Position numbers and translations under genes: made by a program
The notes under the pieces: model-generated
Databases searched by the model: none
What the model was told of the DNA's origin: nothing
Seen by the model: the letters and a program-made list of their open reading frames with translations, nothing else
Shown here: positions 5,085 through 21,659 of the stretch, piece by piece
Position numbering within the stretch: position 1 is the stretch's first letter
How the letters are laid out: every line of letters starts with the position of its first letter
DNA from: an uncultured Clostridia bacterium
GTDB lineage: Bacteria; Bacillota; Clostridia; Christensenellales; Borkfalkiaceae
Length of the DNA stretch: 38,630 nucleotides
Assembly (NCBI GenBank): GCA_944362555.1
Contig: CALVTL010000016.1
Coordinates: 1-38,630 of the forward strand
Reading direction: 5' to 3'

Positions 5085-5593
5085 TACTGTAAGGGAGTAA
5101 TACGAACCCGATCAAAAGCGTCGATTTTGCGGTGATGCATTGTTGAAAGGCTTGCCCGTGCCACACGGCACGCGCTGCGCCTTTTTCTCGGCGGCGCCGA
5201 TGGAAAGCGCCGCCTCGGACACGGTTTTTGCGCTGATAAAGCAAAAACCTCAGTTCGGGGCGCGCGCACGGCACACTGTGCCGATGCGCATAACGCGTCC
5301 CTCACCGCGCCTGACCGCAAAATATACAGCTTTTGATTGCTTTGCACCTTTTGCGGCAAGATTTTGGGATGATTTGCCGCGAAGAGGATGCAGCAATACC
5401 CAAGTATTGCAAAGACGATGAACGGCAAGGCGCCTTACATCATACCGCAGCCTCGCCAAAATATTTTCTTTGAAAAGATTTTGGCGAAGAGGAGCGGCAG
5501 ACGGAAAAGGCGCGGCGTTCGGCTTTGCCGAATGCCTGCAAAACGCGTCTTGCCGCGACGAAAAAGGCGCGTTCGTATTGTTCCCTTACAGTA
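5085..5593 (-). mobile_element. MITE-like repeat, copy B (long form with two extra modules)
   Basis: Bounded by TACTGTAAGG (5085-5094) and CCTTACAGTA (5584-5593). The terminal inverted repeats match over about 22 positions with two differences. Against the 277-bp copies C and D it carries a hairpin-rich insert at about 5180-5310, shared with copy A, and a second at about 5430-5570 found only here. It lies 22 bp upstream of the TIR-GNAT start codon. The end facing that gene carries TTGATC-18 bp-TACAGT read on the minus strand, a weak candidate promoter. It is directly followed by copy C. Confidence 0.85.
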
Positions 5594-5870
5594 TACTGTA
5601 AGGGAGTAATACGAACCCGATCAAAAGCGCCCATTTTGCGGTGATCCATTGTTGAAGCCCTTGCCCGTGCCACACGGCACGCGCTGCGGACTTCGCCTTG
5701 TCTGACCGCAAAATATACAGCTTTTGATTGCTTTGCACCTTTTGCGGCAAGATTTTGGGATGAATTGCCGCGAAGAGGATGCGGCAATACCCGCGTATTG
5801 CAAAGACGATGAACGGCAAGGCGCCCAAAAGATGCCGCAAAAGGCTGGTTCGTATTTTTCCCTTACAGTA
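5594..5870 (-). mobile_element. MITE-like repeat, copy C (277 bp)
   Basis: Compact form with TACTGTAAGGGAGTAATACG at the left end and CCTTACAGTA at the right, followed by TA at 5871-5872. It has exactly the length of copy D. It abuts copy B, so the two facing ends form the palindrome TTACAGTATACTGTAA at 5586-5601. The right end is 22 bp from the stop codon of the metallophosphatase gene, so that gene may be transcribed into the element. Confidence 0.85.
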
Positions 5871-5892
5871 TAAGATGCAGGGATTTCGCGCG

Positions 5893-20490: not shown

Positions 20491-21243
20491 TCAGACCATG
20501 TTCTCTAAAATGAGCTTGTCCGCAACGAGGGCGATAAATTCGCTGTTCGTCGGTTTCTCCGTGCCGATGTACACCCGCGCGCCGAAGATGGCGTTCACCG
20601 CGTCCACCCGTCCCCTGTTCCATGCCACTTCGATGGCGTGGCGGATGGCGCGCTCCACCTTGCTCGCCGTCGTCCCGTACTTCTCCCCGATGACGGGATA
20701 CAGCCCCTTCGTCACATTCCCCATCACCCGCTGATCGGCGACCGCCATCTTGATCCCCTCCCGCAGGTAGGTATACCCCTTGATGTTGGGCGGGATGCCG
20801 ATGGAGATGAAAATGTTGCTGATGCGCTCGTCCAGCGAGCCCGCCCTGCGCCGTTCCAGCCGCTCCCGCGCGGGAACGCCCTCCTCCGACCACAGCTCGG
20901 CGGCACGCTCCTCCACCACCTGCGCCGAAACGGGCTTCATGAGGTAGTACCGCGCGCCCAACGCGATGGCGCGCCCGATGATCTTGTCATCCGCAAAGTT
21001 CCCGAGCACGATAAAATCCGCCTTCACGCCCTCCTTCCGCGCACGCTCCATCACCGTAAACCCGTCCACGCCCGTCAGCAGGAGACTGACGACGACAAGG
21101 TCGGGCGCGCCCTTTTCCAGGAGCGCGAGCCCCTCGGTGCCGTCCCCGCTCACCCCGCACACGACGTGCCCCGCCTGCGAGAAGCAGTCGGAGAGCTCGG
21201 CGGCAAACGCCTCGTTGCTCTCCAGGATCAAAACTCTTTTCAT
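20491..21243 (-). CDS. spo0A: Spo0A-family response regulator with degenerate receiver domain
   Basis: Protein of 250 aa; start at 21243 after GGAGGT. The C-terminal DNA-binding domain (about 140-250) is strongly conserved with Spo0A: GYTYLREGIKM, TASKVERAIRHAIEVAWNRG, KPTNSEFIALVADKL. The receiver (1-120) keeps the fold and the Lys of MKP (K103), but the phosphoacceptor segment reads DLVVVSLLLTGVDG, with S53 where Spo0A has the phosphorylated Asp. The acidic pocket is ES (8-9) rather than DD, and the conserved Thr is G81. It should not be activated by an ordinary phosphorelay. Whether this is the only Spo0A of the organism or a paralogue cannot be told here. Mobile repeat D ends 37 bases upstream of the start codon. 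Confidence 0.92.
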   Translation of the reverse strand: MKRVLILESNEAFAAELSDCFSQAGHVVCGVSGDGTEGLALLEKGAPDLVVVSLLLTGVDGFTVMERARKEGVKADFIVLGNFADDKIIGRAIALGARYYLMKPVSAQVVEERAAELWSEEGVPARERLERRRAGSLDERISNIFISIGIPPNIKGYTYLREGIKMAVADQRVMGNVTKGLYPVIGEKYGTTASKVERAIRHAIEVAWNRGRVDAVNAIFGARVYIGTEKPTNSEFIALVADKLILENMV

Positions 21244-21280
21244 GATCGACCTCCGTTAAAAGACATTGTACAGGGATTTA

Positions 21281-21557
21281 TACTGTAAGGAAAGGATACG
21301 AACCCGATCAAAAGCGTCCATTTTGCGGTGATCCATTGTTGAAAGGCTTGCCCGTGCCACACGGCACGCGCTGCGCCTTTCGCCTCGCCTGACCGCAAAA
21401 TTAACTGCTTTTGATTGCTTTGCACTTTTTGCGGCAAGATTTTGGGATGATTTGCCGCGAAGAGGATGCAGCAATACCCAAGTATTGCAAAGACGATGAA
21501 CGGCAAGGCGCCCAAAAGATGCCGCAAAAAGCGTGTTCGTATTTTTCCCTTACAGTA
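21281..21557 (-). mobile_element. MITE-like repeat, copy D, in the spo0A upstream region (277 bp)
   Basis: Bounded by TACTGTAAGG and CCTTACAGTA, with TA on both outer sides (21279-21280 and 21558-21559), consistent with a TA target duplication. It has the same length as copy C and the same orientation as B and C. It separates the spo0A coding region from a -35 box and an array of 0A-box-like sites. Confidence 0.88.
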
Positions 21558-21582
21558 TACAACATAAAATGCGATTTGTAAA
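21554..21582 (-). promoter_or_regulatory. Candidate spo0A promoter spanning the edge of repeat D
   Basis: On the minus strand TTTACA (21577-21582), 17-base spacer, TATACT (21554-21559); both hexamers match consensus at five of six. The -10 is made of the flanking TA plus TACT from the repeat end. Transcription would start inside the repeat, placing the whole element in a leader of about 300 bases. Confidence 0.65.
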
Positions 21583-21620
21583 GTCATTTTTGTACATATT
21601 CCAAGATTTTATTTACGAAC

Positions 21621-21659
21621 TTTGTCTAATTTTGTACATATTTGTCGAACTTTGTCGAA
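21621..21659 (+). promoter_or_regulatory. Phased 0A-box array upstream of spo0A
   Basis: TTTGTCTAA (21621), TTTGTACAT (21631), TTTGTCGAA (21641) and TTTGTCGAA (21651) start exactly 10 bases apart. The core TGTCGAA is the known Spo0A recognition sequence. They lie about 40-80 bases upstream of the candidate -35, so they are probably sites of spo0A autoregulation. Confidence 0.7.

What the first reader, a model, noticed from the sequence alone, without database searches (positions are those of the whole stretch)
20491..21243. Spo0A homologue without a phosphorylatable aspartate
The receiver motif is DLVVVSLLLTGVDG: Ser53 replaces the Asp that the phosphorelay modifies in Spo0A. The acidic pocket DD is ES and the switch Thr is Gly, while the DNA-binding domain is very well conserved. 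The protein should be constitutively active, controlled by abundance, or regulated by another signal. This agrees with unusual transcriptional control of the gene.
Basis: partly seen in the sequence, partly recalled or inferred. Interest (0 to 1): 0.8.

Follow-up and report, generated by a model that had tools for sequence, protein, structure and literature searches.

The report
Spo0A without its phosphorylation site
A group of uncultured gut bacteria carries a version of Spo0A, the master switch for making spores, whose phosphorylation site has been replaced while its DNA-binding half and a distinctive control region in front of the gene are preserved, so the switch is probably thrown by how much of the protein is made.

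Summary
Window 20491-21243 (-) encodes a Spo0A (over NCBI's equivalog cut-off) with S53, E8/S9 and G81 at the phospho-Asp, acidic pair and switch Thr/Ser. It is no sequencing error: of 84 distinct genus proteins (Candidatus Gallimonas by named relatives) 81 have Ser53 and 84 Gly81. The catalytic quintet is intact in 0 of 84 genus proteins, 0 of 57 from 17 other genera of the family, and 20 of 28 from other families of the order. The receiver fold and other pocket residues are kept. No canonical Spo0A was found in this 92%-complete genome; a second, near-identical copy split over contig ends also has Ser53. Early sporulation genes are mostly retained in the genus; the spore protease GPR gave no match in 91 genus genomes. 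In 71 of 81 genus promoters TTTTGTACAAAA-like operators stand about 21 or 42 bp apart; no such pair was seen elsewhere in the genus sequence fetched. I propose a phosphorylation-independent Spo0A controlled by synthesis: inferred, not shown. Consensus 0A boxes are missing before spoIIE in the window's own clade, so a changed or reduced regulon is a serious rival.

The parts
20491..21243 (-). spo0A coding sequence, 250 aa plus stop
   Evidence: TIGR02875 225.6 bits over cut-off 200
20908..21234 (-). pseudo-receiver domain (residues 4-112), receiver fold predicted
   Evidence: Response_reg 52.6 bits; AlphaFold2, 10-residue means of 88-97 in this part; one search match to 1qmp
21085..21087 (-). 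codon 53, AGT = Ser at the phospho-Asp position
   Evidence: Ser in 81 of 84 distinct genus proteins
21217..21222 (-). codons 8-9, Glu-Ser at the acidic pair (DD)
   Evidence: Glu8 in 84 of 84, Ser9 in 78 of 84
21001..21003 (-). codon 81, Gly at the switch Thr/Ser
   Evidence: Gly in 84 of 84 genus, Ser/Thr in 28 of 28 order outgroups
20512..20823 (-). Spo0A_C DNA-binding domain, including VERAIRHAIEVAWNRG
   Evidence: 132.6 bits; one search match to 1fc3 and 1lq1; invariant columns
21250..21254 (-). ribosome-binding site GGAGG
   Evidence: read from the sequence
21279..21559 (.). MITE-like element inserted in the 5' leader of this copy; 28-bp inverted ends (86% complementary); the leader folds as one long hairpin
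   Evidence: (35 BLAST hits in the genome, itself included, 4 near full length); (-132 kcal/mol, z -8.57, 0 of 100 shuffles as stable)
21554..21559 (-). -10 TATACT, part of the end of the MITE-like element
21577..21582 (-). -35 TTTACA
21589..21598 (-). operator 1, TATGTACAAA, next to the -35
21610..21619 (-). operator 2 position, TTCGTAAATA, 21 bp further upstream (weak match)
   Evidence: consensus; read from the sequence
21631..21640 (-). operator 3, TATGTACAAA, 42 bp from operator 1
21641..21649 (-). 0A box TTCGACAAA
21651..21659 (-). 0A box TTCGACAAA
21621..21629 (-). near-0A box TTAGACAAA

Best explanation
This is an orthologue of Spo0A whose receiver has become a pseudo-receiver. Shown: the phospho-Asp, the second acidic residue and the switch Thr/Ser are replaced here and in the genus, and no protein collected from the family has the full quintet. 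Inferred: histidine-kinase input was given up; the unphosphorylated protein can reach a DNA-binding state, the receiver being kept as a folded, constrained module (perhaps for dimerisation); and activity is set by how much Spo0A is made, through a dedicated operator array and 0A boxes in its own promoter. The factor that reads the array is unknown; it could be Spo0A itself or another regulator.
For: Quintet intact in 0 of 84 genus, 0 of 57 other-genera and 20 of 28 order proteins. In the genus E8, N10, D60, G61, G81, Y100, K103 and P104 are invariant in 84 of 84 and S53 is kept in 81 of 84, so the site is constrained, not decaying. Secondary pseudo-receiver signs from PMC12632262 (sections 7 and 18 read) are met: no Pro at D+4 (0 of 84, order 24 of 28 Pro), Asn at T+1 in 81 of 84; Val/Ile at K+2 in 84 of 84. 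DNA-binding domain mean top-residue frequency 0.93. Phased operators in 71 of 81 genus, 10 of 52 family, 0 of 27 order promoters; means of 10 shuffles 0.00, 0.00, 0.10; 0 phased pairs elsewhere in 1.76 Mb of fetched, partly overlapping genus sequence. 0A box before spo0A, exact: 13 of 81 genus and 21 of 62 other promoters, reached by none of 200 permuted words; 0A box (<=1 mismatch) before spoIIE in 24 of 30 promoters, 22 of them at -58 to -87, reached by none of 200. HisKA counts are low: median 2 in 91 genus genomes, 31 with 0 or 1, against median 4 in 25 order genomes whose Spo0A keeps Asp.
Against: No experiment. In the window's own genome no 0A box with <=1 mismatch lies in the 350 bases before spoIIE, spoIIAA or spoIIGA, and in its clade only 1 of 12 spoIIE promoters has one. 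spoIIAA 11 of 30 (2 of 200 permuted words reach it) and spoIIGA 5 of 30 (6 of 200 reach it) are weak; the one-mismatch spo0A genus count, 43 of 81, is reached by 2 of 200. K+2 of the activating class also occurs in 12 of 28 order proteins, while 31 of 57 sister-genus proteins have Phe. Control by abundance is read from promoter anatomy alone. Low HisKA counts also go with small genomes. GPR gave no match in 91 genus genomes, so the downstream programme may not be ordinary sporulation.
Confidence: 0.52

Rival explanations
1. The pseudo-receiver is a sensor: it binds a small molecule or partner protein in the remodelled pocket (E8, N10, S53, G81, N82, Y100, K103), which switches DNA binding; Ser/Thr phosphorylation of Ser53 is a variant of this.
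For: Pocket residues are among the most constrained of the genus receiver: N10 and G81 84 of 84, N82 and S53 81 of 84. PMC12632262 passages give precedents of ligand-, redox- or partner-controlled pseudo-receivers.
Against: In 57 sister-genus proteins residue 53 is Gly 19, Asp 11, Ser 10, Asn 8, Glu 8, Ala 1, and the quick tree needs at least 26 changes there, so one ligand or kinase site is not conserved family-wide. No ligand or kinase was identified.
Confidence: 0.22
2. Spo0A is repurposed or under relaxed constraint in a lineage that no longer makes ordinary spores; its altered receiver reflects loss of sporulation control, and the DNA-binding domain serves other genes.
For: GPR: match in 0 of 91 genus genomes, 45 of 60 other-family genomes. 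0A boxes missing before spoIIE in the own genome and in 11 of 12 of its clade. SpoMAG classed Borkfalkiaceae MAGs as non-sporulating (PMC12536801, passages). Residue 53 varies across the family.
Against: The receiver is conserved in the genus. Genus genomes keep SpoIIAB (70 of 90 over the cut-off), SpoIIE (86 of 90 at E below 1e-30, none over the cut-off), SigE (81 of 90 at E below 1e-90, 29 over the cut-off) and SpoIVA (86 of 91); a SigK-like factor is in the own genome. spoIIE keeps a positioned 0A box in much of the genus. Another paper lists Borkfalkiaceae MAGs with sporulation potential (PMC11536998, abstract and passages).
Confidence: 0.2
3. Phosphorylation persists at another residue, such as invariant D60, or from an atypical donor.
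For: D60 and K103 are invariant in the genus.
Against: D60 is just as invariant (28 of 28) in the order set, where 25 of 28 keep D53, so it is probably structural; the second acidic residue and the switch residue are gone.
Confidence: 0.04

Closest known systems
Spo0A (TIGR02875; solved domains 1fc3, 1lq1, 1qmp)
   Same: Two-domain architecture, receiver fold, DNA-binding domain 55-58% identical to solved Spo0A domains in structure alignments, VERAIRHAIEVAW helix unchanged, 0A boxes before its own gene.
   Different: Phospho-Asp, second acidic residue and switch Thr/Ser replaced; phosphorylation leading to dimerisation is described as the key switch of Spo0A (PMC3533761, passage).
Pseudo-receivers / aspartate-less receivers (atypical response regulators), PMC12632262 and PMC4395418
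   Same: Receiver fold lacking catalytic residues; the same secondary changes at D+4 and T+1.
   Different: Spo0A does not occur in the main text of PMC12632262; in PMC4395418 it occurs twice, for an engineered Asp-to-Glu change and in a reference title. Here the family's orthologue of a developmental master regulator has changed.
Clostridioides difficile CmrRST
   Same: A clostridial pseudo-receiver regulator (CmrT) controlled through transcription (PMC12632262 passages; abstract starts in the listings).
   Different: OmpR-family regulators with a kinase in the operon and phase variation; no phase variation was shown here.

Membership tests
Spo0A orthologue | Receiver plus Spo0A_C domain over curated cut-offs | tested here: met
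Spo0A orthologue | Recognition helix conserved and 0A boxes at target promoters | tested here: inconclusive
   Helix met. Boxes: both own spo0A promoters met; spoIIE 24 of 30 in one set, 6 of 20 in another, none in the own genome
Spo0A orthologue | Phosphorylatable Asp with acidic pair, Thr/Ser and Lys | tested here: not met
   only Lys and the first acidic residue remain
Spo0A orthologue | Controls entry into sporulation | not testable with these tools
   uncultured genome; pathway genes present, GPR not found
Pseudo-receiver (PsR/ALR) | Receiver fold by sequence and predicted structure | tested here: met
Pseudo-receiver (PsR/ALR) | Lacks one or more of the five catalytic residues | tested here: met
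   D, DD2 and T replaced
Pseudo-receiver (PsR/ALR) | Active without Asp phosphorylation | not testable with these tools
   needs protein work

The most novel reading that the evidence does not exclude
A whole family of gut Clostridia has replaced the phosphorylation switch at the top of sporulation by a synthesis switch: a Spo0A that works unphosphorylated, whose gene (in the genus) is read through a dedicated, helically phased operator array bound by an unidentified factor, feeding a modified, GPR-less developmental programme.
Probability: 0.4. Interest if true: 0.88.

Novelty: new variant of a known kind. Interest (0 to 1): 0.76.

Why it matters
Spo0A is a standard example of a phosphorylation-gated developmental switch, and its presence is used as a marker of sporulation potential (PMC11536998, passage). 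A family whose sampled Spo0As all lack the intact site suggests that the decision can be rewired. It offers about 140 natural variants, spanning loss and apparent regain of the Asp, for asking how pseudo-receivers are turned on and off, which a 2025 review calls a mystery (PMC12632262, abstract). It also warns against inferring sporulation control from gene presence.

Tried and rejected
Spo0A as a mobile gene: pairs of genus loci share a flanking ORF in 0.24 (upstream) and 0.39 (downstream) for spo0A, 0.11 and 0.16 for spoIIE, 0.65 and 0.56 for sigE, so hypermobility is not supported genus-wide. In the window's genome the gene does lie away from an FtsK/SpoIIIE-like gene that follows it in 3 of 6 relatives looked at (in the other 3 the listing shows antisense ORFs, not resolved). 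That gene's upstream flank on C21 holds an atpC-like ORF instead (names by eye).

Invertible promoter in the leader: the insert is a repeated MITE-like element absent from the second copy; inversion itself was not tested. A CodY-like identity of the operator was considered from memory and dropped for mismatch. Single operator sites were not relied on: with one mismatch the permuted-word controls reached up to 13 of 13, 48 of 68, 20 of 54 and 3 of 8 promoters in the four sets against 13, 53, 25 and 3 observed; the phasing carries the argument. A text search for TTGTACAA with operator or sporulation listed 12 of 1,133 papers, titles and abstract starts seen only, none read. Searches for a Spo0A lacking its Asp listed none by title or abstract start; the library lacks most subscription journals.

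Loss of Asp against kinase number in the order: 3 genomes with Glu have 0, 0 and 2 HisKA, 25 with Asp have median 4, Mann-Whitney p 0.019; too few, and related, to lean on.

Full report
What was checked. The finding names a Spo0A homologue at 20491-21243 on the minus strand. The ORF is there, 250 aa, over NCBI's Spo0A equivalog cut-off (225.6 against 200 bits) and Pfam's cut-offs for both domains. Its DNA-binding half is 55-58% identical to the solved Spo0A domains in structure alignments (sequence match). E8-S9, S53 and G81 stand where order-level proteins have the acidic pair, the phospho-Asp and the switch Thr/Ser; K103 is kept.

Where the genome belongs. The window is a whole contig (C16) of a 1.8-Mb, 60-contig, 92%-complete genome. 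Its nearest named relatives are Candidatus Gallimonas species, 83-85% identical in this protein; NCBI places that genus in Clostridia incertae sedis. That GTDB puts it in Borkfalkiaceae, Christensenellales, is recalled. Genus, family and order below are the groups given by the genome search (f1, g1 and so on); loci were put in the genus at 65% identity or more.

How widespread. I collected 169 distinct Spo0A proteins: 84 from the genus, 57 from 17 further genera of the family (the 30 best matches and 30 genomes chosen to cover the genera; 301 family genomes were searched), and 28 from 28 of the 60 order genomes, those with good matches. With the five catalytic positions scored (acidic, acidic, Asp, Thr/Ser, Lys) the quintet is intact in 0 of 84, 0 of 57 and 20 of 28; Asp53 itself is present in 1, 11 and 25. 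In the other genera the site is Gly 19, Asp 11, Ser 10, Asn 8, Glu 8, Ala 1; in the order Glu 3. A quick likelihood tree of 116 rows, genus rows thinned to about a third with the non-Ser rows kept and columns 8, 9, 53 and 81 left out, needs at least 26 changes of residue and at least 9 between Asp and not-Asp. It has 45 open forks of 113, so these counts are rough.

Constraint. Within the genus E8, N10, D60, G61, G81, Y100, K103 and P104 are invariant in 84 of 84; S53 and N82 are kept in 81 of 84. S53 ranks 30th of 115 receiver positions. Mean top-residue frequency is 0.74 in the receiver and 0.93 in the DNA-binding domain, against 0.47 and 0.78 in the more divergent order set. Signs that a 2025 review gives for pseudo-receivers are met: non-acidic DD2, no Pro at D+4, Asn at T+1 (PMC12632262 section 7; counts). 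Val/Ile at K+2, a class its section 18 links with active conformations, is in 84 of 84, but the class is also in 12 of 28 order proteins and Phe is in 31 of 57 of the other genera, so that point is weak. AlphaFold2 gives an ordinary receiver and DNA-binding domain (mean pLDDT 86.7; pTM 0.51, so the domain arrangement is unknown), and Foldseek finds the Spo0A domains and the phosphorylated receiver 1qmp.

A second copy. The genome holds another spo0A split over contig ends: aa 1-57 at C45:8210-8380 (56 of 57 identical, Ser53 included) and aa 214-250 at C21:29601-29711 (identical). The outer flanks differ from the window's, so it is probably a second locus whose middle collapsed in assembly; strain mixture in the MAG is not excluded. 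Two full-length genes also occur on one contig of G068. Five genus genomes at 93-97% completeness gave no Spo0A_C match (G004, G076, G089, G319, G069), which collapsed repeats might explain. No canonical Spo0A was found in the own genome.

Sporulation context. Genus genomes: SpoIIAB over the cut-off in 70 of 90 (85 of 90 at E <= 0.001, the extra ones being weak or partial matches); SpoIIE at E below 1e-30 in 86 of 90, none over the cut-off; SigE at E below 1e-90 in 81 of 90, 29 over the cut-off; SpoIVA in 86 of 91. The own genome has spoIIAB and spoIVA over cut-offs, sigE over cut-off, a SigK-like factor over the NF004471 but under the TIGR02846 cut-off, sigF, spoIIE and spoIIGA under cut-offs, and spoIIAA by position. 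GPR gave a match in 0 of 91 genus genomes and 45 of 60 others of the order. SpoMAG classed Borkfalkiaceae MAGs as non-sporulating (PMC12536801, passages), while PMC11536998 (abstract and passages) lists such MAGs with sporulation potential. Whether Gallimonas makes spores is unknown. HisKA matches: own genome 2, genus median 2 (0-8), 31 of 91 with at most one.

Target sites. 0A boxes (TTCGACAAA, sense strand) before spo0A, promoters split at 65% identity: exact in 13 of 81 and 21 of 62, with <=1 mismatch in 43 of 81 and 47 of 62. Of 200 permuted words none reached the exact counts or the 47, and two reached the 43. Before spoIIE a box is found in 24 of 30 genus promoters, 22 at -58 to -87, reached by no permuted word; spoIIAA 11 of 30 and spoIIGA 5 of 30 were reached by 2 and 6 of 200. 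A second set of 20 spoIIE promoters gave 6: 5 of 8 from elsewhere in the genus and 1 of 12 from the window's clade (11 by Spo0A identity, G004 by SpoIIE similarity). The own genome has two exact boxes and one near-box before each spo0A copy but none with <=1 mismatch in the 350 bases before spoIIE, spoIIAA, spoIIGA or spoIVA. So the link to spoIIE looks real in much of the genus and lost or changed in the window's clade.

The promoter array. The clade's spo0A promoters show repeated TTTTGTACAAAA-like palindromes at about -77, -98 and -119. Anchoring 78 of 81 genus promoters on the copy next to the -35 (the anchor itself is conserved by construction) gives a consensus of three 21-bp repeats followed by CTTTACA and TATAAT. 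Two sites with <=2 of 12 mismatches spaced 20-22 or 41-43 bp occur in 71 of 81 genus, 10 of 52 family and 0 of 27 order promoters; 10 dinucleotide shuffles give means of 0.00, 0.00 and 0.10. At least one site is in 79, 40 and 11, shuffled 9.4, 7.4 and 2.2. In 1.76 Mb of fetched genus sequence, overlapping loci counted more than once, phased pairs occur 242 times before spo0A and 0 times elsewhere; single sites with <=2 mismatches 362 and 99 times, and with <=1 mismatch at 10 non-redundant places elsewhere. In the 38.6-kb window the only TTTGTACAAA sites with <=1 mismatch are the two in this promoter. So spo0A appears to have its own operator array, most developed in the genus. What binds it is not known; whole genomes were not searched for it.

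The leader insert. In the window copy a 281-bp MITE-like element (28-bp inverted ends; 35 BLAST hits in the genome, itself included, 4 near full length) lies between the -35/operator region and the ribosome-binding site; its end supplies the -10 TATACT, and the leader folds as one long hairpin (-132 kcal/mol, z -8.57). The second copy lacks it and reads TTTACA-17-TATAAT.

Conclusion. It is a Spo0A orthologue with a pseudo-receiver. The phosphorylation feature was tested and is not met, so it should be filed as an atypical, aspartate-less Spo0A. The most likely working is phosphorylation-independent binding with control at synthesis (0.52); a ligand-sensing receiver (0.22) and a repurposed or released regulator in a lineage with reduced sporulation (0.20) remain open.

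Noticed in passing
91 genus genomes: The GPR spore protease model gave no match in 91 Gallimonas genomes although early sporulation genes and SpoIVA are mostly retained; 45 of 60 other-family genomes have a match.
   Followed up: partly
window 21279-21559, 5592-5872 and other contigs: A MITE-like element of about 281 bp with 28-bp inverted ends beginning TATACTG; 35 full or partial BLAST hits in this genome.
   Followed up: partly
C45:8210-8381 and C21:29601-29711 of the own genome (L033, L034): Second spo0A copy split over contig ends, near sugar-hydrolase-like genes and an aminopeptidase-like gene (names by eye).
   Followed up: partly
G212:C34:8604-8948 and C4:84701-85045: Two matches of equal score, 62% identical to residues 135-249, in 130-aa open frames with no receiver, beside a full-length spo0A elsewhere in the genome.
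   Followed up: no
L063 (G075), residue 53: One genus member has Asp53 with the ES pair and Gly81, nested among Ser53 proteins: an apparent regain of Asp.
   Followed up: no
L035 and L133 (G068), two spo0A genes 4.1 kb apart: Diverged paralogues on one contig, one with Asn53 and one with Ser53.
   Followed up: no
spoIIAB matches, 30 loci: In 11 of the 30 loci spoIIAB begins within 900 bases of the start of its contig on the same strand, suggesting an assembly-breaking repeat beside the operon.
   Followed up: no
order genomes G099, G117, G118: Three outgroup proteins have Glu at the Asp position; two of these genomes have no HisKA match.
   Followed up: partly
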